Origin: a virus | DNA length: 24,489 nucleotides | IMG/VR virus record: IMGVR_UViG_3300009481_001952 | Coordinates: 1-24,489 of that record | Strand: one strand, 5' to 3' | In this document: one piece after another, positions 3,415-23,583 of the stretch | Position numbering within the stretch: position 1 is the first letter of the stretch | How the letters are laid out: every line of letters begins with the position of its first letter | The notes under the pieces: model-generated | Told to the model about the DNA's origin: nothing | The model's input: only the letters and a program-made list of their open reading frames with translations | The model's database searches: none | Position numbers and translations under genes: made by a program

Positions 3415-5870
3415 TAGCTCGTTTTCACCTCCGTTAGTTCAAATATTAACCTTCTAGTTTGGTCTAAGGTAATATTCCTTGTCGACTGTACCCTACTTTT
3501 TATTAGTTCATCTGCATAACGCATACTTACATAATGAGTATTGCCATCTATGTCAGTATAAAGTATTAAGGGTTCTTTTCTCAAGGTTTCCAAATTAGCT
3601 AGGTCTGCAGTCCTTAATGTATTTCTTCTAATTCTCCTTAATGACATACTACGCCTATCAGTTAATTTAGTTATCGCTGTCCATCTTCTATACTCTACAG
3701 GATTCCACATAGAGTGAAATACTATACCATTTAATTTAGGACCAGATGAAGTTTCGTTACTAGTAAAAGCTATCTTAAATCTAATACGCTTAAAGTTAAG
3801 CTGAAAACTAGATGTTACAGTTTGACCTGAGCTAGTAAATTTTCCATTAGTGCCAAACGTAGTCCATCCCCCAGTATCATCATTACTAGCATCATCAGTT
3901 TTATATGAAACAGTAATATACTTATTAGAATCTAAGTTTTGACCTGTAAGAGTAAGCTTAACAGCAGATTTAGCTACATCTGGAAAGTTAAAGTTTAACC
4001 AACCTGTATATAATGCTCCTGTCAATCTTTGTTCTGTTAAAGAGTTAGTCGAAGGATTTTCATTTCTAATAGGCATACGAATCCTAATAATTCTAGGTAA
4101 AGTATCATTATCTATAGCAGCTAAACTATCTTCTGATTTATCGCCACATATAAACAAGCTAGTCCTAACATCACCTTTAAATTTACCCATAGCAGATATA
4201 GAGCTTACGCTAAATGTAGATATAGTATGAGCTATAGTTTCAGCCCCAGAACCAGCTTCTTCTTGTTGGGTTCTAACAGATAATAATCTAATAGTTTGAG
4301 ATTTTTGTGCCCCTGCAAAGCTAAATGGAAAAGTATAGGGAAATGAGGTTTCAGCCTGTAGGTCATCTGCTAATGCAACAAATAAGTTGTTTCTATCTTG
4401 TGCTAATGCTGATACTCTACCACCAAATCCTGATACTCCAGATGCTTTAAATAAATAAGACAAGTCATTCCATTGATAAGCACCATCAAAAAATCCTGAA
4501 TTTATTTGCCAAAAAGATTGATCTCCACCTGATGCAAATATACTACCTGATCTACCTGTAGCTACCTTAAAGTTATCTGAGTCAGGGAAAAAGTTAGCTT
4601 CTGGTTGTAAATCTCTAAATTTATTAGTAGCTCTATCATAAGCAAATAAACCATCTTCTCTACCTACATATAATATATCGTTAGAAGAAAAAGCATTTGT
4701 TATATCTCTATCTGAATCTCCACAAGTTATTTCTGTTCCCCAATTAGCTGTATCACTAGGGTCTGTTGATACGCTAACTTTATTAGCTCTAGTTTTAAAT
4801 ATTGCTAAATCTCCACTAGCATTTCTAGCTTTAGCAAAATAACTAGCAAATCTATTATTACTTGAGTTCGTAGAAGGTACAGCCCATGTAGTTCCATCTG
4901 TACTACGATAATATACTTGACTAGTACCAAAGGCTATGTATAAAGCACCACCAAAAGATTCTACATCTGTAATTGCAAAACTGGCATCAGCATAAACAGC
5001 TTTCCAGTATACATTAGTATCATCCCATTGATATAAAACTCTTCCACAAGAAAGGTAAATTTTACCTTCAAATTCTATTGGAGTAGTAAATGTAGTTCCA
5101 CCTGTAGGTACTACACCTATATCATCTATATAAAATACATCTTCATCAGCACTACCAGTTAAAGTAAAAGTAAGACTCGTAGCTCCAGAATCTATTGTTC
5201 TAGTAGCATATACTACAGCCCAATCACTAGATCCACTTGCACTAGTACCTGTAGTAGTACCTGCACTATCTGTAATTTTAGCTGTTATAGTGCCTGATCC
5301 ACTTTCTCTTCTAACAAACGCTGTAAAAGTTATTTCTCTACTTCTTAATACACTTACTGTGCCACCATAAGCTTGACTAACTGTTCCACTATTAGATCCC
5401 ATAGTAGCCTTCATACTATAAGTACCATTTCTAACAGTTCCTGTATCAGTAGCTACAGTTACATTAGTTCCTGTCCAATCTGTAACAGTTCCTCTTTCCA
5501 ATCTTCCATTCTTTAAAATTAAGTCTACGTCATCTTCTTGATAACCTAATGTAGCTTCGCCTTTAAACATACCTAATACACCATCACTATAGAAATACTT
5601 AGTTCTAGCTCTATTAGCTGTATCTGCTGTATCAAATCTTTCTATTATTGTTTGACCAAACCCTCTATGAAAGGAATCCTGGTCATATACTAATCCTAAA
5701 TCTGGAGATTGTTGTTGATAGTTAGCAGCATCTATAGCTTGATTAGGTGGTGCAGGGGATAAGTGTTCTATAGCATAACCACCTGTTTCTGCAGTTCTAT
5801 CTAAAGAAATTAATACTGCGTTAGATGATCCATCTGTTTTAGTTAACTTAATATCATAGTTACTAGGCAT
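3414..5870 (-). CDS. Tail protein with CBM-like domain and propeller-like repeats, 818 aa (nozzle-like candidate)
   Basis: The N-terminal ~120 residues include a segment rich in F/Y and D (DQDSFHRGFGQ, GYQEDDVDLI). Residues about 127-252 look like a CenC/CBM4_9-type jelly roll: NGTYSMKA early, SREITFTAFVRRESGSGTIT in the middle, and a closing DVFYIDDIGVV strand. Residues about 260-600 contain repeated short beta units such as GKIYLSCGRVLYQWD, GALYIAFGTSQVYY, DILYVGREDGLFAYD and NNLFVALADD, as in beta-propellers. The last ~200 residues form another beta domain with a basic segment (TDRRSMSLRRIRRNTLR). It lies directly after the 440-residue gene (TAATG overlap) and before the fibre gene. In T7-like phages this position holds the nozzle, which contains a propeller. 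The nozzle role is therefore inferred; a baseplate or receptor-binding role is the alternative. Confidence 0.7.
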   Translation of the reverse strand: MPSNYDIKLTKTDGSSNAVLISLDRTAETGGYAIEHLSPAPPNQAIDAANYQQQSPDLGLVYDQDSFHRGFGQTIIERFDTADTANRARTKYFYSDGVLGMFKGEATLGYQEDDVDLILKNGRLERGTVTDWTGTNVTVATDTGTVRNGTYSMKATMGSNSGTVSQAYGGTVSVLRSREITFTAFVRRESGSGTITAKITDSAGTTTGTSASGSSDWAVVYATRTIDSGATSLTFTLTGSADEDVFYIDDIGVVPTGGTTFTTPIEFEGKIYLSCGRVLYQWDDTNVYWKAVYADASFAITDVESFGGALYIAFGTSQVYYRSTDGTTWAVPSTNSSNNRFASYFAKARNASGDLAIFKTRANKVSVSTDPSDTANWGTEITCGDSDRDITNAFSSNDILYVGREDGLFAYDRATNKFRDLQPEANFFPDSDNFKVATGRSGSIFASGGDQSFWQINSGFFDGAYQWNDLSYLFKASGVSGFGGRVSALAQDRNNLFVALADDLQAETSFPYTFPFSFAGAQKSQTIRLLSVRTQQEEAGSGAETIAHTISTFSVSSISAMGKFKGDVRTSLFICGDKSEDSLAAIDNDTLPRIIRIRMPIRNENPSTNSLTEQRLTGALYTGWLNFNFPDVAKSAVKLTLTGQNLDSNKYITVSYKTDDASNDDTGGWTTFGTNGKFTSSGQTVTSSFQLNFKRIRFKIAFTSNETSSGPKLNGIVFHSMWNPVEYRRWTAITKLTDRRSMSLRRIRRNTLRTADLANLETLRKEPLILYTDIDGNTHYVSMRYADELIKSRVQSTRNITLDQTRRLIFELTEVKTS

Positions 5871-7192: not shown

Positions 7193-7661
7193 TTTTCTCC
7201 CTTACAAGATTTTTTAAAATTGTATTTTCAGTCATCTGTTCTGGGGTAAGGTGAATGGATCTAGGATAAGAAAAACCACTTTCATTAGTTGTCATAAGAG
7301 CAATGTGCATACCAGTAGTTTCACCAGAAGCTGGATCAGTTACAACATTTGCTTCCATAACTCTATTTTGAGAAAGCCACTTATCTCGTCTTATTTTTTT
7401 AATGAGTTGATTGTAATCAGTTTGTTCAAGTTGCTCTTCAGCTTTTTTACCTGCTTCAACTGCTGTATTATTGTCACTATGTTTACCTACTACATCTTCA
7501 GTTAAATGTTTTAATGATTTTTTATCTCCATACCCATTATAAGTATCAGGAATAAAAATTGCAGTCTTTTTTCCATCTTTCTCTACAACACTATCAGTCC
7601 AAGTAATAGGTTGTTGATCTTTAAATATATTTTTATCAGAAGATTTATTATATTTACCCAT
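7173..7661 (-). CDS. Hypothetical virion-cluster protein, 162 aa
   Basis: This is a hydrophilic, highly charged protein with a Lys/Asp-rich N-terminus (MGKYNKSSDKNIFKD). A probable helix follows (AVEAGKKAEEQLEQ, YNQLIKKIRRDKW), and the C-terminus has a P-R-S-I-H-L-T-P-E-Q-M-T-E-N segment ending in a short Asn run. I see no signal peptide, membrane segment or catalytic motif. The start overlaps the stop of the 99-residue gene by one base (TAATG) without a Shine-Dalgarno sequence, so it is probably translationally coupled. It lies between the capsid-proximal small genes and the tail genes, where head-completion, neck or chaperone proteins are often found. I do not recognise the family. Confidence 0.7.
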   Translation of the reverse strand: MGKYNKSSDKNIFKDQQPITWTDSVVEKDGKKTAIFIPDTYNGYGDKKSLKHLTEDVVGKHSDNNTAVEAGKKAEEQLEQTDYNQLIKKIRRDKWLSQNRVMEANVVTDPASGETTGMHIALMTTNESGFSYPRSIHLTPEQMTENTILKNLVREKNDNNNS

Positions 7662-7960
7662 TACGAACCATAGTTTATTAGACCGTGCATTCCACCAGAA
7701 TATGTACCATAAGTTACATTAATAACTGCATCTGTACTTGTAGCTTCAACAAACCTAGCTGCTCGTAAAGCATCATTACCATAAATAACGCATTGGTCTC
7801 CGTTAGTAATTAATTGACCTGTAGCAGTAGCAGGATCTTCATTAAATTTAAGTCTAATTGCTGCTGTTTCTGTACTAAAGGAAGCCATACCTGCACCATC
7901 AGGTATTGACTGTAAAGTCCTTACAGTAGCATCTACTGCTAGTTTTTCATCACCTAACAT
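7661..7960 (-). CDS. Small beta-rich virion protein, 99 aa (decoration/accessory candidate)
   Basis: The protein has the alternating beta pattern of small phage structural proteins: VDATVRTLQSIPDGAGMASF, then TAAIRLKFNEDPATATGQLI, CVIYGNDALRAARFVEAT and INVTYGTYSGG. The 'A-x-R-x-x-x...P-T/A-x-x-G-x-x-L/I...VTYG' arrangement is one I associate with small beta-sandwich proteins of marine phage particles, but I cannot name a family. It is the first gene after the 123-base gap and has a strong ribosome site (GGAGG, 10 bases before ATG). It is therefore probably the first cistron of a transcript starting near 8061. A decoration or neck role is inferred only. Confidence 0.7.
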   Translation of the reverse strand: MLGDEKLAVDATVRTLQSIPDGAGMASFSTETAAIRLKFNEDPATATGQLITNGDQCVIYGNDALRAARFVEATSTDAVINVTYGTYSGGMHGLINYGS

Positions 7961-7987
7961 ATTTTATTTACCTCCATTATTTTTAAA

Positions 7988-8060
7988 TAAAGGGCTTATT
8001 ATTATAATTTCTTATAAAGATTATTGCTCAGAGACTAAACTTCGCTATACAAGCCCTTTA
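7988..8060 (-). promoter_or_regulatory. Foldable 5' leader: 10-bp closing stem enclosing two hairpins
   Basis: TAAAGGGCTT (8060-8051, minus strand) pairs perfectly with AAGCCCTTTA (7997-7988). Two smaller hairpins lie inside. GTTTAGTCTCTGAGC (8040-8026) has a 6-bp stem with two G-U pairs and a UCU loop. At 8017-8002, TTATAA pairs with TTATAA around a GAAA tetraloop. Together they can form a 73-nt three-way junction directly upstream of the GGAGG ribosome site of the 99-residue gene. The stem is not followed by a clean U tract, so an intrinsic terminator is less likely than an mRNA leader or processing element. The folding is inferred by eye. Confidence 0.5.
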
Positions 8061-8067
8061 CTTATTT

Positions 8068-8096
8068 ATTATCTATACTATGACTAGTTAAGTCCA
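8068..8096 (-). promoter_or_regulatory. Candidate sigma70-type promoter for the tail gene block
   Basis: On the minus strand TGGACT (8096-8091, 4/6 to TTGACA) lies exactly 17 bases before GATAAT (8073-8068, 5/6 to TATAAT). The predicted transcript would start at about 8061, one base before the foldable leader. The element overlaps the last codons of the 120-residue gene. It sits in the only sizeable gap inside the operon, where a second transcript start is plausible. In AT-rich DNA such matches also arise by chance. Confidence 0.4.
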
Positions 8097-9276: not shown

Positions 9277-10182
9277 TTATGAGAACGCTGCATCAGTAGC
9301 AGAGTAGAACTCAGCACCCCATGTATCTACGATTTCAAGTTCACCCCAGTTTCCTGTAGTTACTACTTCATTACCTCGTAGTGAGATATCTCTTTCTTCT
9401 TCTGCTGTGATTTCAGTTTCCATAGCTAGAGCTAGAGCTTCTCTTACAAAGATTGCTCCTTTTGAGTCGCCTGATCCATCTCTGGATATTACACCTGACT
9501 CATAAATAGGTACGTTAAATACCGATTCATTTCCTCTATAGTAATTTCTTAATACTTCTGCCGAATATCCGTCTGGAATTGGCTGAGCTGCCATACCTGT
9601 AGATCCACCACCTTGAATACCAGTTGATTCCTGAACAAACCTTCTGATTTGTTCTGGATGGAATACACCATGTGGTGTTCCTGGAGCTGGTCCAAATGCT
9701 GTGTTGTTATCTGTCTTTAGGTATGATATAGCACCAGCAACGTGCAAGAAAGTTCCTGCGTTACCAGCACCTGGAGCTGATACAGAGAATCCATCAAATA
9801 ATGTGATTAGATCACTCTCTAAAAGCCTACCAACAGCGTTACCTTGCACTTCTCCCACATGAGCCATGACACTTTCGTTGTTCTGTCTTACGAGCTTGTC
9901 GGATACAAAAGTAAGAATACCATGCTCTGTTGCAGTAAGGTTTCTTACAGTTACACCTAATTGCTCTGGAACAGAAATGTCTATACCTTCTGCGAGAGCA
10001 GATGCCGTATTTCGACCCCAAATAGGTACGTTAATTTGCTTAACACCTTTTGGAATATCATATCGGCTAACCAACTGGTTAGTTGGTCCTGCAGGTTCAA
10101 TGTTGGCAATAGCGTTTGCTATCATTATCGCACTCATATCTTCTAGACTGGAAGTATCGGATAATGTTAATCCTGTTGCCAT
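9277..10182 (-). CDS. Major capsid protein (HK97-fold type), 301 aa
   Basis: The length, the position directly after a scaffolding-like gene and the composition fit a phage major capsid protein. The N-terminal helix-like segment (SSLEDMSAIMIANAIANIEP) is followed by a typical strand region (LVSRYDIPKGVKQINVPIWG, SALAEGIDISVPEQLGVTV) and a long helix (FVSDKLVRQNNESVMAHVGEV, GRLLESDLITLF). Then come a Gly-rich loop, a P-domain-like segment (HPEQIRRFVQES...YSAEVLRNYYRG) and a C-terminal beta part (IFVREALALAMETEITAEEE, WGELEIVDTWGAEFY). AAGGA lies 8 bases before the ATG. The gene looks richer in G+C than the surrounding genes, as is common for highly expressed capsid genes. The fold assignment rests on pattern and context. 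Confidence 0.85.
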   Translation of the reverse strand: MATGLTLSDTSSLEDMSAIMIANAIANIEPAGPTNQLVSRYDIPKGVKQINVPIWGRNTASALAEGIDISVPEQLGVTVRNLTATEHGILTFVSDKLVRQNNESVMAHVGEVQGNAVGRLLESDLITLFDGFSVSAPGAGNAGTFLHVAGAISYLKTDNNTAFGPAPGTPHGVFHPEQIRRFVQESTGIQGGGSTGMAAQPIPDGYSAEVLRNYYRGNESVFNVPIYESGVISRDGSGDSKGAIFVREALALAMETEITAEEERDISLRGNEVVTTGNWGELEIVDTWGAEFYSATDAAFS

Positions 10183-11004: not shown

Positions 11005-11034
11005 ATATTAAACCTAGACCTAATCTTCTGTAAA
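11005..11034 (-). promoter_or_regulatory. Candidate promoter for the scaffold/capsid block
   Basis: On the minus strand TTTACA (11034-11029, 5/6 to TTGACA) lies 18 bases before TAATAT (11010-11005, 4/6). It overlaps the end of the giant 1940-residue gene and lies about 38-65 bases upstream of the scaffold start, in a 52-base gap. A dedicated promoter ahead of capsid genes is biologically sensible, but the match is modest in AT-rich DNA. Confidence 0.3.
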
Positions 11035-14000
11035 GGTAGGTAGGTAGGTCTGCATAGGAAAAGGCATACCTAGTTCACCTTTCCTAAAGTCAAATCTATT
11101 ATAAGGATGTTTTAAGGTATTAGTTTTACCTATACCAAATCTATATAAGAAAGCATCTAATTCTGGATCAGTTTGCCTAAGAATTTCTCTAGCTTTTCTC
11201 ATATCTCTAAGTAATATCTTAATATAAGGAGATTGTTTTTCTATATCTGCTCTAATTTGAAAGCTAGTAGCATTCTTCCATTCTTTATATGCTTCTTTAG
11301 ATTGTTCTCCATGAAAATCTAATGTCTGCTCTTCTACTTGACGATAATAAGTATCTAAATATTTTTTTCTACCTGCTAGATACTCTAGGTATAAAGGATG
11401 AGAGCCTTCGCCTATCTTAGGTATATCAAACCTAGAATCTATGTATTCCATAACTTCAGGACCTACTCTTTCTTCAAATTCTGCTACTTCTGCATTTCTA
11501 GCATCCCAATCTACAAATTCACTATCTGAACTACCTAAGCCTAAATCTACTAATTCATTAGGTAATAAAGAATGAGTTGTGTCATCAGTAATTATTCTCA
11601 TATATTCGTCATAAAAGAAATCACCTACATTATCTATATCTTCAAGTTTTCTATATTCTAGGTTTTCATATATAGGTTGATATAATGAATTTTCTTTTAA
11701 TCTTCTAAATGCCATTCTTTTTTGGTGGTTAGCATCTTTTATTAAGTTAATATATTGTGGTAAATCTATTTGATTATCTTGTACTGCTATATCTAATGCA
11801 GTTAATTGTTCATCCCATGTACCTTTTATTAAATCTATTTCATCATACCAGTCAGGTAAAACTTCTTGAGCTAATGTTCCAAAAGGACTCTTTTTTCGTT
11901 CACTAAATATTCTTTCTTGTTCTGCTGCTATATCATCAGCAGTACCTGCATTTGCTATTTCAATTTCTTCTTTTTGTAATACAGATAAATCTTCCCAGTT
12001 AACACCATGAACACGTTGAGCTTCCTGATCTTGAAGTTCTTGTAATACTTCCCAATCAGTAGTTTCCCTAGCATTCATTCCTCCAAATTCAGAAATTGCT
12101 CCTAATGGATTAACGCTACCCTGTAAAAATCCTGTTTCAAACCAAAATGGAGCTAATTGTGATCCTATATGCTTACTTATATCTACAGGAGTTTCTAAAG
12201 GCTCTCCAATAAAATCATGTCCTTGTTGTAAATCCCATGCAAGACCTGATATAGGAGAAGTTCTTCCCCTTAACCAACTAACTATAGGATTTCTTAATAA
12301 ATTAGCTGTTGTTCCTCTAGGTTCTTCTGATTGTAATAATAATGGAGAATCAGCTTTATCTCCTCTAAATGCAGGATCACCTAATATATTACCAGTAAGC
12401 TTTAGTGCTGATAACCAAAAAGAACCTGGACCAACAAAATTATCTCCTACTTTTAATTTCATAAATTTACCACCATCTCCACCTTCAGATGTAGGTCTAG
12501 GATCTAAATATAATTGAGACCTTTCTGATTCTGGAACACCTCTAGCTGCTTCTTGTATATTCATTGCTGTAACTGTTCCTGCATATATAGTTGTTCCAGC
12601 ACTCAACATTTTTAAAAGAGTATCTCTAGCCATTTCTCCTTGAATACCATTTTTTCCACCTAATAAAACATCTGTTATTACAGACATACTAGCTCTAGTA
12701 TATCTAGGTGAAAAGAACATAAAGGCTCTTTCTAAAGCTATACTTTCTCTATTTGCACCTAATGCCCTAGAGTCAAATGCTCCAGTCATTTTATTAACTA
12801 AATCAGATAATTGTTGCATAGCTAATTCTTTATCTGTTCCTGCTACTGCAGCTTTTTTTAATGCTGTTTTTTCAAGTGCTTCAAATAATTCTATTCTTGC
12901 CATATCTCCAAAAGTATCAAAAGCATCATTGAACCTTTCAGCTGCTTTACCTATACCAAATCCTACCTCAAGACCTTCTTGTGCCCTTTCTTTAGCAGTA
13001 GCACCATATATTCCTGTTTTTGCTGTAGCTTCATCAAATCTTGAAAAGGTTTTAGGTATCCATTCTCCTTTTCTTAATGCAGCATAATAGTCTAACCCTT
13101 CTCCAGATACATTTGCCCCAGAATCTATCATTCGTTGTATAACATCACGTTTTTGAGCATAAAAAGATGCTATAGACTCCTTTCCTTGAAAGAATACTTT
13201 ATAGTGATTTCCAGTAGCTCTTGCCCATCTTGCAGGACTTGTAAAAAATAATGGTAAACCTTGTATTACAGGAGCACCTAAGTCAAATGCTGTTTTAAAT
13301 ACTCTTAATACATCTCCCATTTTCCCTAAACTTTCAAGTGCTTCAAATTTCTTTGCTCCAGTTCCCAAAAATGCTTCTACTCCCTTTTTAGTAGCTGGGT
13401 CAAAAAAGTAATTTTCAAGTTCTTTTGTATATATTCCATTTTTAATAGATATGTTTTCTAACTGCTCATGTCTTTTAAGGTCTGTGCCGAAGAATTTTTT
13501 AGCTTGTTCATTTTTACCAAGTTTTACATTAGGATCTACTAATCTACCTTTACCTTCTAAAGTTTCCTTATAATTTATAATTGATTTTTCTAATGCTTCA
13601 CTTTGATTATCTAAATTCTTAACTATTTGATCAAACTCTTTATTAATAGAATTAATACCTTCTGTTACATTATTTGCAAATGTAGGATCTTCTTGATATT
13701 CACGCAAAAGCCTTCTTAAAGGTTTAGGGTATTTATCCATAAGAGCATCAAATTCTACTTTATAAAAAGCACCATCTTTATTTCTTATATTTTTTAATAA
13801 TTTTCGAGATGTTTTAGAATCATTTTGTAATAACCCTAAAGTACGAATTAATTGATCATTACTATTTATAGTATTATTTGCATTATTAATAATTTTTTCT
13901 AAACTTTCTTCTAAATCACTTCTTAATGTTGCTCTTAATCCTGAATCTGTAGAAGTTTTAGTATAGCTTTCTTGATATCTTGCTAGGCGATCATAAAATT

Positions 14001-16842
14001 CTCTATTTGTAGTTCGATTAAAAACTCCTACTCCACCACGACTTTTTTTCAAACCATCTATTCTTCCAATAATTTCGTTTAATTTATTTTCTCCTACAGT
14101 AACCCTTTTTTTAATTAAATAATCTCTATCATATTTTTTAATTAATTTATGAAAACCATCATTTGCATTTGCTATTTGATTTTTAATAGTATTCAAATCT
14201 TCTAAAGCACCACCTGTTAATAAATTTTTATTAGCTAAATCTTCTAATTCTTTACCAAAAGAAGATAATAGACCGTCATAAGTAACCACTCCTTCTGTAG
14301 TTACTGTTCTATTTCCTATTAATTTTCTTAAATCTGTTATAGTTTCAGGAAATTTAAACTTACCTTCTATTTTGCCTGATTTAGGTGAAATCAAACTTTT
14401 ATATTTACTATCTTCAAATAAATGTATATTTGTATCTGTTTTCCTATAAAGGATTTCTTTAATTTTTTTACTGTAACCAGGATTTTGTTGAAGAAATTTA
14501 CCTTCAAAAGGAACTAAAACTGGTTCAAAAAAACTAAAATCTTGACTTCTTGTAAAACTTTTTACATCTTTTTTCCATGCTGAAAGTGAAGGTCGTTTAG
14601 CTATTTTTAAACTATTTCGTAAACTTTCTGCTATATCTAATTGTTCTCTATAATCTATATCTAAATTACTAGCCATTTTTCTGGCATTTTCTAAATTACG
14701 AGCTCTTTGTTTAATTGGACCATTTAAAGCTTCATCCATTTTATCTAAAGAAGGAAGAATCTCATTTAGTTGTGGGTCTGCAACAGTTTTTTGAATTAAT
14801 CTTTGTAAATCATCTGCATAAGGAGCACCTCTAATAACTGATTTAGGGGTTAATTTAGTTATATGTTTTTTAAAATTATCAACTGTATTTTTTAACCCTG
14901 CTCTTTTCATCCTAAGTTCAGCTATTTCTGATGAGGCGTTATAACTTTTTAACCCTATACCCTTTAATCTATTTGTAAGTTTGGTATCATTTATTCTTTG
15001 TAAAATTTCTCCACTTTTTATATCAAAAGATGCAACTGGGTTAAGATAACTAACCTTCATTTCAGCAGCATCATCTAATGTTTTTATAGACCAATCATCA
15101 TCTAATAAAGATTTAAAGTTTTTATCTATATCATTTAAGTCAGGAGTACGAAAAATTCTTTTCTTTTCTGCTCCAATTTTAGTAAAAGCTACCCTTCCTC
15201 TGTGCATTTGTCTATCTTGTATACTATCTACTACTCTACCTATATATCTTCTACCAGCTTTTAATGTATCTAATTCATAAGAAAGAGAACCTTTCTTTAG
15301 TATTGTTTTCAAACCTATATCTTCTGGTTTTAAAATTCCATTTTCAACTAAATGATAAGCGTGTTCTCCCCAAGCATTTATAATTTCTTTAAGGCTACCT
15401 TGTTGTTTTTTATTTGCTTTAAGCCAACTTGCAGCATTACCAGCATCATCAAAAGCATTTTCTAAAAATGTATGCCAATCTTTTAATTGTTCTCTTGCTT
15501 TAGTTGCATTTTTACCAAATTTTGTTTTTAAACTTCTAGGTTTTATAAAATCTCTAAATATATCACCTTCATCTATTCTTTTAGAATTAATACCTAATTC
15601 TGTAAATCTACTACTATATTGCCTAACAGCATGAGCAACCAAGCTTTTATTTTCAACTTCGCTTATTCCATGAAGAAGTAAAGCTCTACCAGATTTAGAT
15701 TGATTTTGGACAATAGAGGCATCAGCCCATCCCCAAATCCATCTTAAAGGAGCTAAAATCTTACTTTCAGTAGCCCCAACCCATTGTCCTGCTGCTTTTA
15801 AGTCTGATATAGAATTAGGATCATTCATTCTTCTTAATTTAGCAAAATCAGATTTTCCACTTTGTAAATATTTTTTTGATGTTTTAAATAAAGGAGCTCT
15901 ATAGGCTTCTTTAGCACCAGTCTTAAAGCTTTTAGCTACTTCATTATCTGAAAGAAATTGAGATATAGTTCTTTCGTCTAATCCTTCTTCTCCTTTTTCT
16001 AACCAATCAAAAAATTTATCTGTTAATTGTTTTTGTCTTTTTTGGTCTTGACCTTTAAATACAGTTTGTTTAACAGTATTTTTAGTTTGTTTTAACCAAT
16101 ATTGTCTTGGCATTGTAATAGTTTCTTCTCTAGTAATACCTATACCTTTAACAAATTTAGGATAAGGTGCTTTAGCTAATGCTTTTCTTCCTGCTTTAGC
16201 TGCTGTTTTTACTCCAACTTTTACTCCAGCACCAGCACCCCAAAATACAAAGTTGGTAGGATCTGATGCTAGTTCTATGCCAAATTTAAGTGGATCTACT
16301 TCCCATCCAAAAATACTACCCTTAGCATAATCTGTTTCTCTCCAAGCAGCCCTAGAAGATAACGTATTAGCTTCTTTTTGCGTTTTACCTGATTTTAAAT
16401 ATTCTCTTTCGTATCTTTTTTTCTTTCTAGCTAATTCTCTGCCAAATCTAGGGTTTACGGCTTTAGCAATTCCAGTTATAGGGTTTAATCCAGATGCTGA
16501 TGCTGATACAGTCCAATCATCCCATTTTTGCATTGCTTTCATAAACCAATTAGCATCCTTTTCTCTAGCTATAGGATTTGGATTATTAGCATTAGCTTGA
16601 GCTACAATAATGTCTGCTTGTGCACCAGTAGGTAAACTAGGAGTATCAAACTTATTAAAGTCCATAGGAGTAAACTGTGGTTTAGTCATTATTTGTTGTC
16701 TAACCCTATTAGCTTGATCTCTTAACATTTGATCTTCTAGCTTTTGCCTTTGCCTTCTAGTTAAGTAATAAGTAGACCTAGTAATAGCATTTGATCTATC
16801 ATCTCTACTATAAGGATTTTGATTATCAAAAGGTCCAGCCAT
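11020..16842 (-). CDS. Giant 1940-aa phage protein, probable internal/ejection protein
   Basis: It is very long, Lys/Asn/Glu-rich and largely helical. The N-terminus is polar (DRSNAITRSTYYLTRRQRQK). Residues about 193-215 hold a Gly-rich hydrophobic segment, SDPTNFVFWGAGAGVKVGVK. A long central part (about 300-1150) is lysine-rich with many heptad-like helices. Residues ~1374-1386 carry FMFFSPRYTRASMSV, followed by a second hydrophobic stretch (LLKMLSAGTTIYAGTVTAMN, ~1408-1430). Residues ~1515-1550 carry RNPIVSWLRGRTSPISGLAW and then D-x3-G-x2-F-x-G-E-P-L. This C-terminal signature recurs in very large phage virion proteins that I cannot assign to a named family. I see no lysozyme, transglycosylase, protease or polymerase active site. 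It follows the 1029-residue gene with a one-base gap and precedes the scaffold. A packaged DNA-ejection protein is the best inference; a displaced tape-measure-like protein is the alternative. Confidence 0.75.
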   Translation of the reverse strand: MAGPFDNQNPYSRDDRSNAITRSTYYLTRRQRQKLEDQMLRDQANRVRQQIMTKPQFTPMDFNKFDTPSLPTGAQADIIVAQANANNPNPIAREKDANWFMKAMQKWDDWTVSASASGLNPITGIAKAVNPRFGRELARKKKRYEREYLKSGKTQKEANTLSSRAAWRETDYAKGSIFGWEVDPLKFGIELASDPTNFVFWGAGAGVKVGVKTAAKAGRKALAKAPYPKFVKGIGITREETITMPRQYWLKQTKNTVKQTVFKGQDQKRQKQLTDKFFDWLEKGEEGLDERTISQFLSDNEVAKSFKTGAKEAYRAPLFKTSKKYLQSGKSDFAKLRRMNDPNSISDLKAAGQWVGATESKILAPLRWIWGWADASIVQNQSKSGRALLLHGISEVENKSLVAHAVRQYSSRFTELGINSKRIDEGDIFRDFIKPRSLKTKFGKNATKAREQLKDWHTFLENAFDDAGNAASWLKANKKQQGSLKEIINAWGEHAYHLVENGILKPEDIGLKTILKKGSLSYELDTLKAGRRYIGRVVDSIQDRQMHRGRVAFTKIGAEKKRIFRTPDLNDIDKNFKSLLDDDWSIKTLDDAAEMKVSYLNPVASFDIKSGEILQRINDTKLTNRLKGIGLKSYNASSEIAELRMKRAGLKNTVDNFKKHITKLTPKSVIRGAPYADDLQRLIQKTVADPQLNEILPSLDKMDEALNGPIKQRARNLENARKMASNLDIDYREQLDIAESLRNSLKIAKRPSLSAWKKDVKSFTRSQDFSFFEPVLVPFEGKFLQQNPGYSKKIKEILYRKTDTNIHLFEDSKYKSLISPKSGKIEGKFKFPETITDLRKLIGNRTVTTEGVVTYDGLLSSFGKELEDLANKNLLTGGALEDLNTIKNQIANANDGFHKLIKKYDRDYLIKKRVTVGENKLNEIIGRIDGLKKSRGGVGVFNRTTNREFYDRLARYQESYTKTSTDSGLRATLRSDLEESLEKIINNANNTINSNDQLIRTLGLLQNDSKTSRKLLKNIRNKDGAFYKVEFDALMDKYPKPLRRLLREYQEDPTFANNVTEGINSINKEFDQIVKNLDNQSEALEKSIINYKETLEGKGRLVDPNVKLGKNEQAKKFFGTDLKRHEQLENISIKNGIYTKELENYFFDPATKKGVEAFLGTGAKKFEALESLGKMGDVLRVFKTAFDLGAPVIQGLPLFFTSPARWARATGNHYKVFFQGKESIASFYAQKRDVIQRMIDSGANVSGEGLDYYAALRKGEWIPKTFSRFDEATAKTGIYGATAKERAQEGLEVGFGIGKAAERFNDAFDTFGDMARIELFEALEKTALKKAAVAGTDKELAMQQLSDLVNKMTGAFDSRALGANRESIALERAFMFFSPRYTRASMSVITDVLLGGKNGIQGEMARDTLLKMLSAGTTIYAGTVTAMNIQEAARGVPESERSQLYLDPRPTSEGGDGGKFMKLKVGDNFVGPGSFWLSALKLTGNILGDPAFRGDKADSPLLLQSEEPRGTTANLLRNPIVSWLRGRTSPISGLAWDLQQGHDFIGEPLETPVDISKHIGSQLAPFWFETGFLQGSVNPLGAISEFGGMNARETTDWEVLQELQDQEAQRVHGVNWEDLSVLQKEEIEIANAGTADDIAAEQERIFSERKKSPFGTLAQEVLPDWYDEIDLIKGTWDEQLTALDIAVQDNQIDLPQYINLIKDANHQKRMAFRRLKENSLYQPIYENLEYRKLEDIDNVGDFFYDEYMRIITDDTTHSLLPNELVDLGLGSSDSEFVDWDARNAEVAEFEERVGPEVMEYIDSRFDIPKIGEGSHPLYLEYLAGRKKYLDTYYRQVEEQTLDFHGEQSKEAYKEWKNATSFQIRADIEKQSPYIKILLRDMRKAREILRQTDPELDAFLYRFGIGKTNTLKHPYNRFDFRKGELGMPFPMQTYLPTFTED

Positions 16843-16843
16843 A

Positions 16844-19800
16844 TTAAGTAGCTACTCCTCCGCCTAAAGCTCCGAAAGGATTAGATATTCCAGCAGGAGT
16901 TACACCTTGTATTAAGTTAACTAAAGCAGAAGGAGTTACACCTAATGCTCCAAATGCACCTTGTAAGAAGTTTAAGAACTCATTAGACCTACCTTGTAAT
17001 GCTGCAGCACTAGGTATAGCTCCACCAAATGGAGTTTGACCTGTAGTTAGTGCTGATAAAGCACCTAATGCACTAGGGTTAGATAATAATGTTAATAATG
17101 CTGTTAATCCTTGAACTTGTTGCCCTTGTTGTTGTTCTGCTAATCTTTGTTCTGGAGTAAGACCTCCCCTAGCTACTGATTCCTGTAAAGATACATAATC
17201 TTGAGGAGTTAGCCCTGCTCTAGCAGCAGTACCTTGAGCTTGTTGCTGTGCTTGATATAATTGAATTTGTTGATCTGGGGTTAAACCACCTCTAGCAAGA
17301 GATTCTTGTAAAGCTATATATTGGTCTACGCCTAAACCTGCTCTAGGACCTGCAGCTTGTATTTGAGTTTGTTCTAACTGTTGTTGAGGAGTTAACCCAC
17401 CAGTAGTTTGTAATGTTAACTCAGCAAGTCTTTGCTCAGGAGTTAATCCACCTCTAGCTTGTTGTCCTTGAAGGTCTAAGTATTGCTGAGTAGATAAGCC
17501 AAAAGGATTAGCCTGTGTTTGTGCAACACCTAATCCTGCTTGTGCTTGTATTCGTGCCACTTCTTCTGCAGATAAACCTTGCGTTCTAGCTATATATTCT
17601 TGAGCTTGTCTTTGTAATTCTGCAATTTCTCTATCTGCTTGAGTTTGAGCACCAGCTACACCTGCCTGAACATCTGCTACATCTAGTTGTCCTGCTCTGG
17701 CTTGTTCTGCCATATATCTATCTGCAGATATTTGTTGTGCTGCTATTCTTTCTTGAACTTGTCCTTCAGTTAAAGCAACACCAGCTTGAATGTTAGCTAT
17801 TATTTCAGCATTAGTAGCCTGAATATTGGCTATTGTTTGTTCAGTTAATCCTGTAGCATCTGCTATAAGTTTATTGTATTCGCCTCTTATTCTTTCAACT
17901 TCTTGAGTACTTAATCCTGTTTTTTGAGCAGCTTCAATAGTAGAATTTGCAGCAATAGTAGCGACCTCAATATCACTTAATCCATTTTCAGTTGCTACTG
18001 ATATTTGAGCATTAGTAGACATTTCAGCTATTGCTTCTTCTGTTTCAGCAGTTAAAGTTGCTATAGATAAATTATTTGCAGTATTGTCTTTTGCTATTTG
18101 TATTTCAGCTTCAGTTTGAGTTGAAGCGATTGATTTTTGTGCTTCTGTTTGTATTCGTGCTACTTCTTCCTGATTTAACCCTGTTTGATACGCTACATTT
18201 TCTTGAGTGCGTTGTTGTATTCGTGCTACTTCAGCAGCACTATATCTTTGAGTAGATGCTACATCTGTAGCTGATTTAGAATTTATTTCTGCTACTTCTT
18301 TAGCAGTTAATCCTGTTTGTTTAGCTACTTCTATATGTGCATCTGCTTGTATTTGTGCTATATCTTCTTGATTTTGACCAGTAATTCTAGCTAATTGTTG
18401 CTGTTCTTCAGTGCTATATCTTAATAATTTTTCTTCTTGAGCCATCTTCATACCTTCAGTAATCCGATTCATACCAAATTCATACTGTTCTTGGTCAAAC
18501 CTACGTTCTAGTAACGCTTGTTGTTGTCGTTCAAGGTCTACTTTTGCTAATAATCCATATTCTTCAGTTCCTGCTCTTTCTATTTCTAAAGATAATCTTT
18601 CTTGCTGTAGAGCAATTTCTTCATCCATTCTTTCTCTAGCTAATTTAGTTTGTTCTTCAGCTAAATCTCTTTCCATTTCTTGTCGCATTTCTTGCAAACT
18701 TCTTTCATGTTCTTGAGTTAGTTGTAATCTTTCTTGCTCAAGGTCTGATGTAAGCTGTGCCATAGTTTGATCTCGTTCTGCAATAGCTTCTTGCTCTTGT
18801 GTCATTCTTTGAGATTGTATTCTTGCATCTTGAACATCTCGCATCATATCTATCATTTGTTGACTTTCTGGAGCTATTTCCCAAGACCTAGTCTCCATAT
18901 TGTAATAACTCTTAATTAAATCTCTAGGTATCATAGGAACAGTAGCATCTGTAGCTTGTGATTCTGCTAACATACCCATAAAATCAGCCATTCTGACTCT
19001 TTCATCTTCTGTAAAAGGACTAGCTCCTCCTTGACCATCACCTGCTGGACCATAACCTTGAGGGTATTGATCAGCTATATCTTGTTTAGCCATTTGTGAA
19101 ATATTTTGTTCACTTTGTAAAATAGCATCCATATCTGCTTGGCTTTCATTTAAAGCTTGAAGTGAAGCCTGTTTTTTTTCTAAAGACATATTAAAATTAT
19201 TAACAACCAAATTATGTATTTGGTTCATTAAGTTTGCATCATTATTATCTATAGCTTGTTGGAATGCTGTTGCTAAATTCATATTATTTATATACAAACC
19301 TGTAGCATTTAATTTAGCCATATTTGAGTTTCTGGCAGCTACATTTTTTCTCAAATTTACATCTTGTTCATTTAAATTTGGTGATCCAGAAGGTTCTATT
19401 CCAAGAATATCTAAATCAAGAATATCTGCTATTGCACTAGAAGAACCAATAACAGCAGTTGATTTTTGATTCTGTAATTGAATTTGTTCAGGAGTAGGAG
19501 TAGGTGGTGTAGTTGGAGCAGTTGGAGTAACAGGAAATGTTCCAGTTTCAGGATCAATATTTTCATATAGCCCAGTTTTAATATTCCATTCTTTACCTTG
19601 ATCTATTAAAGCTTGTCTTTGTTTATCCATATCTTGTTTTTCTTGTAACTGACTTACTGACATTACTTCTCCCCTTTTTCCAGTTGGAAGTCCTGTTGTA
19701 GGAAAAAGAGGACTACTTTGATCCATAAATTGAAAAGCAGAAAAACTTGGATCAAATGGTATATTTCTTGTAAGATCAGCCTGAGAAGCTACAGGGAAAT

Positions 19801-19933
19801 TAGGTTGTTGGTATGTAGGGGTATTAGCTAATCTCCTAGCTTGTTCTGTTTGCCTTGCTATCTCATCTTCGTTATAGGCTTGACCATAAATAGAAGAAAA
19901 AGGGTTACTCCAATCATTATATCTATTAACCAT
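16844..19933 (-). CDS. Repeat-rich coiled-coil virion protein, 1029 aa (ejection/internal candidate)
   Basis: Residues 1-160 are disordered and Pro/Gln/Thr-rich; 190-290 look helical. Residues ~375-500 are a charged coiled coil (EQERLQLTQEHERSLQEM). Residues 501-720 are 20 consecutive 11-residue repeats with V/I/L at position 3 and Ala at position 4, e.g. EEVARIQTEAQ. A 7-residue insert, three more 11-mers, another 7-residue insert and four more 11-mers reach residue 811. Residues 812-941 consist of seven Gly-Leu-starting units with a basic length of 17 (GLTPEQRLAE, GLTPQDYVSLQES). The C-terminus is Ala/Leu/Gly-rich and amphipathic (LTALLTLLSNPSALGALSAL). GGAGG lies 9 bases before the ATG, whose first base is the last base of the 67-residue gene's stop. 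Internal tube or membrane-active ejection roles are inferred; a structural shaft is the alternative. Confidence 0.75.
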   Translation of the reverse strand: MVNRYNDWSNPFSSIYGQAYNEDEIARQTEQARRLANTPTYQQPNFPVASQADLTRNIPFDPSFSAFQFMDQSSPLFPTTGLPTGKRGEVMSVSQLQEKQDMDKQRQALIDQGKEWNIKTGLYENIDPETGTFPVTPTAPTTPPTPTPEQIQLQNQKSTAVIGSSSAIADILDLDILGIEPSGSPNLNEQDVNLRKNVAARNSNMAKLNATGLYINNMNLATAFQQAIDNNDANLMNQIHNLVVNNFNMSLEKKQASLQALNESQADMDAILQSEQNISQMAKQDIADQYPQGYGPAGDGQGGASPFTEDERVRMADFMGMLAESQATDATVPMIPRDLIKSYYNMETRSWEIAPESQQMIDMMRDVQDARIQSQRMTQEQEAIAERDQTMAQLTSDLEQERLQLTQEHERSLQEMRQEMERDLAEEQTKLARERMDEEIALQQERLSLEIERAGTEEYGLLAKVDLERQQQALLERRFDQEQYEFGMNRITEGMKMAQEEKLLRYSTEEQQQLARITGQNQEDIAQIQADAHIEVAKQTGLTAKEVAEINSKSATDVASTQRYSAAEVARIQQRTQENVAYQTGLNQEEVARIQTEAQKSIASTQTEAEIQIAKDNTANNLSIATLTAETEEAIAEMSTNAQISVATENGLSDIEVATIAANSTIEAAQKTGLSTQEVERIRGEYNKLIADATGLTEQTIANIQATNAEIIANIQAGVALTEGQVQERIAAQQISADRYMAEQARAGQLDVADVQAGVAGAQTQADREIAELQRQAQEYIARTQGLSAEEVARIQAQAGLGVAQTQANPFGLSTQQYLDLQGQQARGGLTPEQRLAELTLQTTGGLTPQQQLEQTQIQAAGPRAGLGVDQYIALQESLARGGLTPDQQIQLYQAQQQAQGTAARAGLTPQDYVSLQESVARGGLTPEQRLAEQQQGQQVQGLTALLTLLSNPSALGALSALTTGQTPFGGAIPSAAALQGRSNEFLNFLQGAFGALGVTPSALVNLIQGVTPAGISNPFGALGGGVAT
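17111..17500 (-). repeat. 17-residue Gly-Leu repeat array (7 units)
   Basis: Residues 812-941 of the 1029-residue protein divide into seven units that each begin with Gly-Leu, with lengths 17, 17, 20, 17, 24, 17 and 18. Two sub-types are visible: GLTPEQRLAE-like, and GL-x-x-x-x-Y-x-x-L-Q-E-S-x-A-R-G. The near-identical pair GLGVDQYIALQESLARG and GLTPQDYVSLQESVARG points to recent duplication. Confidence 0.8.
17501..17773 (-). repeat. Interrupted continuation of the 11-residue repeat
   Basis: Residues 721-811 comprise LTEGQVQ (7), three 11-mers starting ERIAAQQISAD, GAQTQAD (7) and four 11-mers starting REIAELQRQAQ and including EEVARIQAQAG. Inserts of exactly seven residues keep helical phase if the repeat is a mixed 11/7 coiled coil. 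Confidence 0.7.
17774..18433 (-). repeat. Twenty tandem 11-residue (33-bp) repeats
   Basis: Residues 501-720 align as 20 consecutive 11-mers with no insertion or deletion (660 bases = 20 x 33). Position 3 is V, I or L in 19 of 20 units and position 4 is Ala in 18 of 20. Gly-Leu recurs at positions 8-9 in several units (TGL in IEVAKQTGLTA and ENVAYQTGLNQ), giving a partial 22-residue super-period. The repeats are diverged at DNA level, so they are old and conserved by selection on the protein pattern. Confidence 0.85.
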
Positions 19934-20136: not shown

Positions 20137-22045
20137 AAGCTCCTCCTCCTGGAGCTAAGTCAGCCCCTGTTGTAGTTCTTCTAGGTCCTGTTCTAGGTCC
20201 TGCCATTTGTCTACCTACTAAATTTTGTTCATCTATGCCTCCAGGCATTACTGGTCTAGTCTGATTACCTGTAGGAGCTCCTGCTCCTGCTTGGTTTCCA
20301 GGTCCAAAGTTACCAGTATTAGGTAATTGCATACCACCTTGAGTATTTAATATATTATTAGCTATTTGCTGAGCACTATCTTCTGTAGCCCCAGTAGCAG
20401 ATTGTATAGCTTGAGATAACTGTGGTAGTTTTTCTGCTGCTATTTGAGCAAATAACATTCTTACTTCAGGTATATTGAAGAAATCTTCAGCTATCCTATT
20501 ACCTATTACTTCTAGTGGATTACTTACTCCAGCACTTCTAAGAGCTGTTCCCCAATCCACAAAACCTGCTCTCCATGTATCTCTCCATAAGCTAAGTTTA
20601 CGTTCTTGTTCTTCAGGGCTTACGCTACTTAATCGTACTAAACTAACATAATGCCCACGAATATCGTTAGGTTTTAACTTAGCATCAAGGTCTCCTGTTT
20701 CAGTCTTTCCGAATACAGTAACCTCATCATTTATAACATTTTCTACAATCTTTAATAATATTTCATTAGATTCCTGCATACCACGTTCAGTAGCATCTAC
20801 TACAGAGCTAAAGTTAAGACTAGCTATACCTGCTAATACAGCAGTATGGTAGCCACTAGCAGCACCTACTGGTCTTTCTCCTCTAGTTACTGCAGGAACA
20901 GTATTAGCTTCTATAGCACCTTTTATTGTTTGCATAGCTATTAATATGCTTTGAGGTGCTTCTGCTATAGGATCTGGTACTACTTCTACGTTAGTTGGAA
21001 TATAATTTCTAGCTCCTGGTTCTTGAGAATACTCAGACATAACTTCTTCAGTTAACCCTCTAGGTCCTCTAAATGAAATGTTAGACCAAGCGTTTCTACC
21101 TACTATGTCTAGGTATTGTGAAGCTAACCTAGATTCTGCTCTTAACATACCAAAGTTACCATGACCTATACCTCTATATAGATGTTCAGGCTTCCTACCT
21201 ATAGTTTTTACTCCAGTTTGTGGGTAATACTTAACAAAAGGTATTCTTCCGTAAGTATGTTTTCTAGGTTTCATAGCCCATCTTTCATCTGCTATGTAAG
21301 CTACATGAGTAGATGTCCATACCTCTAAAAATTCTACAGTACCATTTGGTTTACCTTCCCATTCAGGAAAATGTGCAGACACCCAAGAAGCATCCATATC
21401 GCAAAACTTAATTATCCATCTAGGAGTTGTAGAAGCTATATCCCATACACATTCTTGAGGATTTATTACTTCAGCTACAATAGGAAAGGTAAATTTTCTT
21501 TTATTAATAATTTCTTGTATTTTTTCCTTATATACAGCTTCAGATTCATCTTCTTCTTGATCTGGAAAATCACTCCATAAGTGTCCTGCAAATTCATATT
21601 TAGCCCATGATACTCCGTATAATCCCTGATGTTTTACAATTTCTCTTTGAACAGGAGTAGTTTGTTGAATCATGTGATGAGCACCTTGTAAGAACTTTTC
21701 TATAAGTTCTGCTCTGGCTTGACCTCTAGGACCTGGTGGTGGAACTGATATATCAATAAATTTAGGACTAGCGTGTGAAACTAATGTTTCAATAATAGAA
21801 TGAAATGTTCCAAGTTTTACTTGGTTTCCACCTTCTGGAACAGAAAAGTCAAATTCACCAGTATAGAATTGATCTGCTTCTTCACAATTCTTAAAAAAAT
21901 TCCGAAAGGTAGACATAGCTCCTTCCTGAGACATTTGTGTCAATACCCATTGCAAGGATAAACCTGGTTCTTCTTCAGGTAGAGCAGAAAGTAAATCTGC
22001 AGTTTCTTGTGCAGAGCTTAACAATTCTGTGTTACTCATTGCCAT
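20129..22045 (-). CDS. Portal protein, 638 aa
   Basis: It lies directly after the large terminase and has the layout of phage portals. The N-terminal helical part (FRNFFKNCEEADQFYTGEFD) leads into a conserved-looking 'stem/wing' region (LGTFHSIIETLVSHASPKFI, VKHQGLYGVSWAKYEF). A beta wing follows (PIVAEVINPQECVWD, WIIKFCDMDASWV, VEFLEVWTSTHVAYI), then the long helical crown approach (YRGIGHGNFGMLRAESRLAS, AGIASLNFSSVVDATERGMQ). The C-terminal ~80 residues are Gln/Gly/Pro-rich and probably disordered. It forms the ring vertex through which DNA enters and leaves. GAGGAGG lies 7 bases before the ATG at 22045; a second in-frame ATG at 22039 is possible. The start overlaps the terminase end by 10 bases. 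Confidence 0.85.
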   Translation of the reverse strand: MAMSNTELLSSAQETADLLSALPEEEPGLSLQWVLTQMSQEGAMSTFRNFFKNCEEADQFYTGEFDFSVPEGGNQVKLGTFHSIIETLVSHASPKFIDISVPPPGPRGQARAELIEKFLQGAHHMIQQTTPVQREIVKHQGLYGVSWAKYEFAGHLWSDFPDQEEDESEAVYKEKIQEIINKRKFTFPIVAEVINPQECVWDIASTTPRWIIKFCDMDASWVSAHFPEWEGKPNGTVEFLEVWTSTHVAYIADERWAMKPRKHTYGRIPFVKYYPQTGVKTIGRKPEHLYRGIGHGNFGMLRAESRLASQYLDIVGRNAWSNISFRGPRGLTEEVMSEYSQEPGARNYIPTNVEVVPDPIAEAPQSILIAMQTIKGAIEANTVPAVTRGERPVGAASGYHTAVLAGIASLNFSSVVDATERGMQESNEILLKIVENVINDEVTVFGKTETGDLDAKLKPNDIRGHYVSLVRLSSVSPEEQERKLSLWRDTWRAGFVDWGTALRSAGVSNPLEVIGNRIAEDFFNIPEVRMLFAQIAAEKLPQLSQAIQSATGATEDSAQQIANNILNTQGGMQLPNTGNFGPGNQAGAGAPTGNQTRPVMPGGIDEQNLVGRQMAGPRTGPRRTTTGADLAPGGGAYG

Positions 22046-23583
22046 TTAATATCCTCCTCAAGAATTAATGGTACTCCATTAACTTGCAAATCAGGAAACT
22101 GTCTTTGAGCTTCTTCTATTTGCTTTTTTCTTCTTGCCCTTTTGATTCTTTGTATTCTTTTAGATGTATTAGATGATTTAGCACCTAAAGGTTCAAAGGT
22201 TTTAATACTAGGTATTATCTGTTTCATATTAGAGTCTACCATAGCAGGATCACAAGCCATTAACGCTAGACATTCTGCGTCTACCCAGTCATCATGCGTT
22301 GAGTCAGGGTGGCTAAAACTATAACCCATACCCATTTGCTTTACCTCTATCGCCTCCATCTGGTTTTTTAGTTTATCCCATGTAGAGGGAAATTGCACAG
22401 TACCATTTTGTAACGCTATAGCATAGTTTAAAAATAGTTGGTATTTAGATTGTTGAGTAAACTTAAATCCTACTACAGGCACATTCATAGATAGTAGTTC
22501 ATCATATATTACATCACCACCCATACCAGAACTATCTATCCTAACTTCTTGTACTTTCCAATTAGCACATTCTATAGCTATAGTATCTTTCTGTAACACC
22601 CAATCTGTTTTTAACATTTCTACAGCATATACAGATTCTCTAGTTACTCTATCCTTTATAACTAGCACAGTAGGGTCTACTTGTTTACCTAAGTCTAGTC
22701 CTGCTACATACTGTTTAGCTGCATTAGGTCTAGATGTTTCTACTCCTGTAGATGCTTCATGTATCTTGTTAAAGAATCCACCTGCACCTTCTGGTTGTTC
22801 AGCTAAGTAATGCCTTCTCCATATATCATCAGTAGTTAGATCTCTTTCTCTATTAATATCTTCTAACTGATCTGGACTTAGATAATGATTATCAAAAGTA
22901 GTAGCTTTTATTGCAATAGCAGAAGTATTAGGTTCTTGTTCAGCATTTCTAAACCTTCTTGAAAACCAATGGGATCTAGATATAGGGGGTATGCCTTCTA
23001 TACAAGCTCTACCTATTCTTCCAGGAGAGTTAAGAGTAGGTCGCACTTTATTCCATGCTGCTTCCTTTATGTCCTGTGCCTCTGCTATATGCAAAAAGTC
23101 TAACCCTACAGTCTGTAAGGACTCTGGGTTATCAGCAGACTTTAATTCCCATAAAATAGTTTTTCTATGCCTTCCTGGAAGCCACTTACCATTTGGTGCT
23201 CTAAGTTCTAATTCTACATATAGTTCATCTTCTTTCCACCCAGACCCTCGACCTCCAGCTCTACCTGCTACTCTTTTTTTAACAAGGTGTGGTGGTATAA
23301 ATGCTTTCATCTCATTCCATACTTGTCTCATTTGTGCTCTAGTAGGAGCAACAGTCCATATATGTATAGGAGGAACAAGAGTATTAGTCATATCAATATT
23401 ATTAACTACGAAAGGTTTTCTAGATGCTTCTTCGATAAGACTTAATGCTTCTTGTATTACAGCTCGACCCTTACCAGCTCGTCTACCAGCCCAGATATAT
23501 TTCACTCTGGCTTTTAATCCATGTAGACGTTTCTGCCATTCACAAGGGATGTAATTTACAACTACATTAGTTTTCAGAACCAT
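22036..23583 (-). CDS. terL: Terminase large subunit, 515 aa
   Basis: This is the packaging motor ATPase and headful or end-cutting nuclease. The ATPase part has a terminase-type Walker A, AGRRAGKG (residues 32-39), a conserved LKSADNPESLQ segment (147-157) and a Walker B region FLHIAEAQ (163-170) with the likely catalytic E168. The RNase H-like nuclease has GLDLG with D297, RIDSSG with D350, and the final HDDWVDAE cluster (H430, D431, D432, D435). The Walker A lacks the usual Ser/Thr after Lys (it reads GKG), and the Walker B aspartate is Ala. Such variants occur among terminases, and the intact nuclease triad argues for function. It starts inside the end of the upstream gene (17-base overlap) without a clear ribosome site. 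Confidence 0.93.
   Translation of the reverse strand: MVLKTNVVVNYIPCEWQKRLHGLKARVKYIWAGRRAGKGRAVIQEALSLIEEASRKPFVVNNIDMTNTLVPPIHIWTVAPTRAQMRQVWNEMKAFIPPHLVKKRVAGRAGGRGSGWKEDELYVELELRAPNGKWLPGRHRKTILWELKSADNPESLQTVGLDFLHIAEAQDIKEAAWNKVRPTLNSPGRIGRACIEGIPPISRSHWFSRRFRNAEQEPNTSAIAIKATTFDNHYLSPDQLEDINRERDLTTDDIWRRHYLAEQPEGAGGFFNKIHEASTGVETSRPNAAKQYVAGLDLGKQVDPTVLVIKDRVTRESVYAVEMLKTDWVLQKDTIAIECANWKVQEVRIDSSGMGGDVIYDELLSMNVPVVGFKFTQQSKYQLFLNYAIALQNGTVQFPSTWDKLKNQMEAIEVKQMGMGYSFSHPDSTHDDWVDAECLALMACDPAMVDSNMKQIIPSIKTFEPLGAKSSNTSKRIQRIKRARRKKQIEEAQRQFPDLQVNGVPLILEEDIKWQ

What the first reader, a model, noticed from the sequence alone, without database searches (positions are those of the whole stretch)
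7988..8060. Compact three-way-junction-like RNA leader between head and tail genes
A perfect 10-bp stem encloses a 6-bp hairpin with a UCU loop and a 6-bp hairpin with a GAAA (GNRA) tetraloop, totalling 73 nt. It fills most of the only sizeable intergenic gap and lies just before a GGAGG ribosome site. Such a structure could stabilise the tail-gene mRNA, act as an RNase III site or set head/tail stoichiometry. A new structured RNA motif is possible.
Basis: partly seen in the sequence, partly recalled or inferred. Interest (0 to 1): 0.6.

Follow-up and report, generated by a model that had tools for sequence, protein, structure and literature searches.

The report
Hairpin marking phage head-tail gene boundary
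The stem is real: in related marine phages a strong RNA hairpin sits between the head genes and the tail genes although its letters keep changing, which points to an mRNA-protecting or processing element of a known general kind rather than a new three-armed RNA.

Summary
All late genes run on the minus strand, and the minus-strand RNA at 7988-8060 folds as described (2 of 200 shuffles fold as well). The closing stem is really 16 bp (7984-8064).

The three-way junction does not hold up. In four homologous copies the closing stem stays (9-10 of 10 pairs), but the UCU hairpin keeps only 1-4 of 6 pairs and the GAAA hairpin 2-5 of 6.

What is conserved is a strong closing stem at the head/tail gene boundary. 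All 27 distinct homologous gaps (34 of 40 sequences examined) hold one, 8-21 nt after the stop codon and just before the next ribosome site, with stem sequences differing between clades and loops of 3-93 nt. Distant pelagiphages have a hairpin directly after the capsid gene: GNRA loop in 80 of 81, both-side changes in 8 of 11 pairs. The window's ~90-nt version recurs at 83-85% nucleotide identity in phages whose capsid proteins are 30-33% identical.

No U-tract follows, so it is not a classical intrinsic terminator. Most likely it protects the head mRNA's 3' end, or is a processing site. Function is inferred.

The parts
7976..8070 (-). ~90-nt element shared with other phages (extent of covariance model R1)
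   Evidence: Aligned copies in L006, L286, L280, L279; model R1 finds the window at 92.6 bits by construction, and L002, not in the model, at 36.7 bits, E 1.3e-5
8049..8064 (-). 5' arm of the 16-bp closing stem
   Evidence: 0 of 1000 shuffles of the gap give a stem as good
7984..7999 (-). 3' arm of the 16-bp closing stem
   Evidence: Predicted; keeps 3, 4, 4 and 1 of 6 pairs in L006, L286, L280, L279
   Evidence: Predicted; keeps 5, 5, 4 and 2 of 6 pairs in L006, L286, L280, L279
7971..7975 (-). GGAGG ribosome site of the next gene
   Evidence: Sequence; ten bases before the ATG at 7960-7958
7661..7960 (-). downstream gene dn99 (99 aa, small beta-barrel of unknown function)
   Evidence: AlphaFold2 mean pLDDT 92; best fold matches mostly uncharacterised phage proteins
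8084..8446 (-). upstream gene up120 (120 aa, unknown; last gene of the head cluster)
   Evidence: homologues in 37 of 40 sequences
9277..10182 (-). major capsid protein
   Evidence: tblastn to capsid proteins of HTVC026P, 111P, 112P, 202P and DSL-LC06, 30-32% identity; weak Pfam Phage_capsid_4 match below its cut-off

Best explanation
An intercistronic mRNA stem-loop at the boundary between head and tail genes. Shown: a strong closing stem is kept at this place across relatives while its sequence changes, set shortly after the stop codon and just before the next ribosome site, without a U-tract. Inferred: once the polycistronic late mRNA has been cut further downstream, 3'-to-5' exonucleases stop at the stem, so the upstream head (capsid) messages outlive the downstream tail messages, giving many capsid copies per tail from one transcript, as at malE-malF. 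The loop content is largely free to change. The ~90-nt version in this window looks like one module among several that phages swap at this boundary (also inferred).
For: Stem in 27 of 27 distinct gaps, at most 5 of 1000 shuffles as good in 24 of 27; fixed placing between stop codon and next ribosome site. Pelagiphage hairpin after the capsid gene in 81 of 81 readable loci, GNRA loop in 80; 8 of 11 pairs with both-side changes, 98.4% of cells paired, covariation 0.554 against shuffled 0.213 and slid 0.03-0.13. No U-tract: 0-5 T in the 8 nt after the stem in 27 gaps, 0-4 T in 80 of 81 pelagiphage-type loci and 6 in one, whereas 20 of 67 other hits of one hairpin core have 6-8 T. The same description (stable hairpin, no uridine tract, stabilised upstream gene) fits E. 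coli programmed operon decay (PMC5927463 section 7).
Against: No RNA data. Nothing shows that upstream mRNA is more stable or abundant. Loops of up to 93 nt and elements with AU-rich stem ends are not the neatest exonuclease blocks. Whole-gap MFE is not exceptional in L003 (183 of 1000), L006 (95) and L023 (178). Within-clade covariation among the window's close relatives is slight. The near-identity of the ~90-nt interior between distant phages is more than a simple exonuclease block needs, so it may have a further function or be recent exchange.
Confidence: 0.5

Rival explanations
1. RNase III (or another endonuclease) processing site: the double-stranded stem is cut, separating head from tail mRNA and making new ends on both sides.
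For: Long perfect stems between late genes; phage T7 late mRNAs are processed by RNase III at intergenic hairpins (recalled, no call).
Against: Pelagiphage stems are only 11-12 bp with a tight GNRA loop, short of the roughly 20 bp of good RNase III substrates (recalled).
Confidence: 0.18
2. Translational insulator: the stem stops terminating ribosomes from sliding on to the next start, so tail genes are translated independently of head genes.
For: The stem sits 8-21 nt after the stop codon and 6-23 nt before the next start with a ribosome site, between the footprints of a terminating and an initiating ribosome (footprints recalled).
Against: Many other gene pairs in the window overlap or abut without any insulator; nothing explains why only this junction would need one.
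Confidence: 0.12
3. Partial transcription terminator (factor-dependent or atypical) that lowers transcription of the tail genes, like T7 T-phi after the capsid gene.
For: Place after capsid genes matches T7 T-phi (recalled); the same hairpin core with a T-run is used as an ordinary-looking terminator in other contigs.
Against: No U-tract in the 27 gaps or in 80 of 81 pelagiphage-type loci; the window stem has a 49-nt loop; the terminator scan does not report it.
Confidence: 0.1
4. A DNA-level feature: a small mobile or recombining inverted-repeat element, kept for its role in exchange rather than in RNA.
For: A ~90-bp block is shared between phages with mostly dissimilar DNA around it; L279 carries a divergent copy among other genes.
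Against: One true copy in each of the three other records searched that hold it; the other versions keep a fixed place and spacing; GNRA loops suggest RNA.
Confidence: 0.05
5. Operator for a phage protein, for example the capsid protein binding the hairpin to regulate its own or the next gene, as the MS2 coat protein does.
For: Place directly after the capsid gene and invariant GGG-CCC plus GNRA loop in pelagiphages; MS2 parallel recalled.
Against: Stem sequences and loops differ completely between clades with similar capsid proteins, e.g. L002-L005.
Confidence: 0.05

Closest known systems
malE-malF-type intercistronic 3'-protective stem-loops (programmed operon decay, PMC5927463)
   Same: Stable hairpin between genes of one operon, no uridine tract, upstream gene needed in larger amount
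   Different: Phage, not bacterial; place kept while sequence turns over; large and variable interior in the window group; stabilisation not measured
RNase III sites between late genes of T7-like phages (recalled)
   Same: Intergenic hairpin on a polycistronic late mRNA
   Different: Shorter stems and GNRA loops in pelagiphages; cleavage unknown
T7 T-phi terminator after the capsid gene (recalled)
   Same: Hairpin downstream of the capsid gene, ahead of tail genes
   Different: No U-tract here, and a 49-nt loop in the window
REP/MITE-like dispersed palindromes (recalled)
   Same: Short inverted-repeat element found in more than one gene context; REPs can also protect mRNA ends
   Different: One true copy per record here and mostly at one gene boundary

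Membership tests
Intercistronic 3'-protective stem-loop | Stable hairpin between two genes read in the same direction | tested here: met
   27 of 27 distinct gaps; 81 of 81 readable pelagiphage-type loci
Intercistronic 3'-protective stem-loop | No uridine tract after the stem | tested here: met
   0-5 T in 8 nt in 27 gaps, median 1; 2 T in the window
Intercistronic 3'-protective stem-loop | Upstream mRNA segment outlives the downstream one, with 3' ends at the stem | not testable with these tools
   Needs RNA data from infected cells
Intrinsic (Rho-independent) terminator | Run of U directly after the stem | tested here: not met
   contrast
Intrinsic (Rho-independent) terminator | Compact hairpin with a short loop | tested here: not met
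   Window loop 49 nt; it is met in L028, L018 and the pelagiphages
RNase III site | Double-stranded stem of about 20 bp (recalled) that is cleaved | tested here: inconclusive
   Stem 16 bp in the window, 11-12 bp in most pelagiphages; cleavage not testable
Any Rfam family | Score at or above the family's gathering score | tested here: not met
   0 matches in the window; at E up to 10 only snoZ267, 16.2 bits against 43 needed; 0 matches at E up to 1 in six related loci
   1-4 of 6 and 2-5 of 6 pairs in four copies
REP/MITE-like element | Several copies per genome | tested here: not met
   One true copy in each of the records of L006, L286 and L279; records may be fragments

The most novel reading that the evidence does not exclude
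Marine phages keep a dedicated, exchangeable RNA module at the head/tail gene boundary. Whole stem-loop cassettes are swapped between distantly related phages as interchangeable parts, and the stem sets the head-to-tail expression ratio through programmed mRNA decay or processing. The ~90-nt cassette of this window, far more alike in nucleotides than the genes beside it, would be one RNA family among several that do the same job.
Probability: 0.25. Interest if true: 0.65.

Novelty: new member of a known kind. Interest (0 to 1): 0.45.

Why it matters
How a phage makes hundreds of capsid subunits but few tail parts from one late transcript is usually ascribed to promoters, terminators or translation. 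A hairpin held at the capsid/tail boundary across many marine phages, with strong covariation in a group that includes phages isolated on Pelagibacter (HTVC026P, HTVC111P and relatives), makes a post-transcriptional answer directly testable. If cassettes really are swapped, it also shows RNA parts evolving as interchangeable modules.

Tried and rejected
Ribozyme-like reading of the junction: no known core recognised by eye, no Rfam match. tRNA or tmRNA: none in the window. Intrinsic terminator: no U-tract. Conserved inner hairpins: rejected. Copies in cellular genomes: 17 pattern hits in genome contigs, none with the closing stem arms, taken as chance. Annotated phages: best blastn matches to the L286 element have E 0.07 or worse, taken as chance. 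Of 12 contigs with the same stem arms, seven (L276, L277, L278, L282, L283, L285, L287) carry unrelated interiors and were not counted as copies. Dropped before counts: 6 of 40 sequences lacking one or both flanking genes; 3 of 84 pelagiphage-type loci cut too short; L042 left out of the covariation alignment for its 7-nt loop, and identical 32-nt windows merged to 46. The 80 IMG/VR relatives are the best of at least 576, so biased to close ones. Literature: searches listed no paper whose title or abstract start describes this hairpin; only open-access papers are held. PMC5927463: abstract, outline and section 7 seen; PMC3014915: passages seen; all others only search listings.

Full report
OBSERVATION. 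The window is a 24,489-base virus record, 34.7% G+C. The long genes that tile it lie on the minus strand, so the relevant RNA is the minus strand. The closing stem extends to 16 bp (7984-8064). The gap (7961-8083, 123 nt) is the only sizeable one between genes; the next is 37 nt.

WHERE IT LIES. The 301-aa gene at 9277-10182 is the major capsid protein: 30-32% identical to the capsid proteins of Pelagibacter phages HTVC026P, 111P, 112P and 202P and of phage DSL-LC06. A terminase large subunit is at 22036-23583. Three small genes follow the capsid gene, then the stem, then a 99-aa gene, a 162-aa gene and large genes whose order and size suggest tail parts (inference). The 99-aa protein models with high confidence as a small all-beta protein, and its best fold matches are mostly unnamed phage proteins.

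HOMOLOGOUS GAPS. Capsid searches gave 39 relatives. With the window that is 40 sequences, of which 34 have both flanking genes, with 27 distinct gaps. Every one holds a stem: arms 9-17 bp, loop 3-93 nt. In 24 of 27 at most 5 of 1000 shuffles reach its stem score; the exceptions are L006 (68), L010 (30) and L023 (23). The whole-gap energy is unexceptional in L003, L006 and L023 (183, 95 and 178 of 1000). The stems of different clades share little sequence, but all lie 8-21 nt after the stop codon and 6-23 nt before the next start codon with a ribosome site. In L017, L018, L022 and L023, where a small extra gene sits in the gap, the stem stays before that gene's start. Within clades, pairs changed on both sides are few: 2 of 14, 1 of 13, 0 of 13, 0 of 16, 1 of 14 and 1 of 15; the third and last of these alignments do not bring the stems into register.

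PELAGIPHAGES. In the four Pelagibacter phages and their closest 80 IMG/VR relatives, the region after the capsid stop codon could be read in 81 of 84 loci. All 81 have a hairpin beginning 6-16 nt after the stop. Its loop is GAAA in 65, GCAA in 13, GAGA in 2 and not GNRA in one (HTVC112P). On 46 distinct sequences, 98.4% of cells pair, 8 of 11 pairs show changes on both sides (92 cells; shuffled mean 29.2, 0 of 500 as high), and sliding the partner by 1-3 columns destroys the signal. Cells count sequences, not events, and the set is biased to close relatives. The fifth annotated relative, DSL-LC06, has an HNH endonuclease gene after its capsid gene and was not counted. So this hairpin is under selection for pairing, and the GNRA preference points to RNA. 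That these hairpins and the window's stem do the same thing is inference from position and spacing.

THE WINDOW'S OWN VERSION. A search with the two stem arms found 12 contigs. Copies of stem plus interior occur in five of them: L281 (the L006 contig), L280, L284 (near-identical to L280), L286 and, more divergent, L279. The window matches L286 over 88 bp at 85% and L280 over 89 bp at 83%; L006 matches L286 over 97 bp at 92%. The DNA around these blocks is mostly dissimilar, apart from a few other stretches, and the window's capsid protein is only 30% (L286) and 33% (L280) identical to theirs. In L286 and L280 the element again lies downstream of the capsid gene and its small neighbours; in L279 it lies among other genes. 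A covariance model built from five copies also finds L002, which was not in the model and has a longer interior (E 1.3e-5), and no other relative convincingly, among 48 sources searched. The three records holding L006, L286 and L279 have one true copy each. The three-way junction is therefore a feature of this one sequence, not of the element.

MECHANISM. No U-tract follows the stem. A stable hairpin without a U-tract at the boundary of a stabilised operon segment is the description given for E. coli structures that stop 3'-to-5' exonucleases (PMC5927463, section 7). Placed after the head genes, this would raise head over tail mRNA. Confidence about 0.5; RNase III processing, translational insulation and partial termination are the main rivals. 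No RNA data were available.

NOVELTY. No Rfam family matches. Nine literature searches of an open-access library listed no description. As a kind, intercistronic stem-loops are known. What seems new is the constancy of place with turnover of sequence, and the apparent swapping of whole stem-loop cassettes at the head/tail boundary of marine phages.

Noticed in passing
L017, L018, L022, L023, between the stem and the dn99 homologue: A small extra gene for a roughly 30-40-aa lysine- and glutamate-rich protein sits in the gap, with its own ribosome site; L011 has almost the same stem-loop as L023 without this gene.
   Followed up: no
L002:7106-7244: The closest relative (capsid 96% identical) has the same stem but an interior about 45 nt longer with extra hairpins.
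   Followed up: partly
L206, L168, L197, L201, L163, L176, L189, L200: Hairpins of the same GGG/GAAA type without a long T-run lie between other small genes in unrelated-looking contigs, several just before the next start codon; intercistronic hairpins may be widespread in these phages.
   Followed up: partly
HTVC026P (L275) 5091-5114, and 805-839 on the minus strand: Two further hairpins in gaps between genes of the complete pelagiphage genome.
   Followed up: no
L045:5822-6241: Phage DSL-LC06 has an HNH endonuclease gene, on the opposite strand, right after the capsid gene where its relatives have the hairpin.
   Followed up: no
loops of window, L003, L006, L007, L019, L020: The otherwise different interiors often hold AAAGTTA or a near variant; not tested against chance.
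   Followed up: no
window 11020-16842 and 16844-19933, minus strand: Two very large genes (1940 and 1029 aa) with at most one weak family match (PHROG 3590, unknown function).
   Followed up: no
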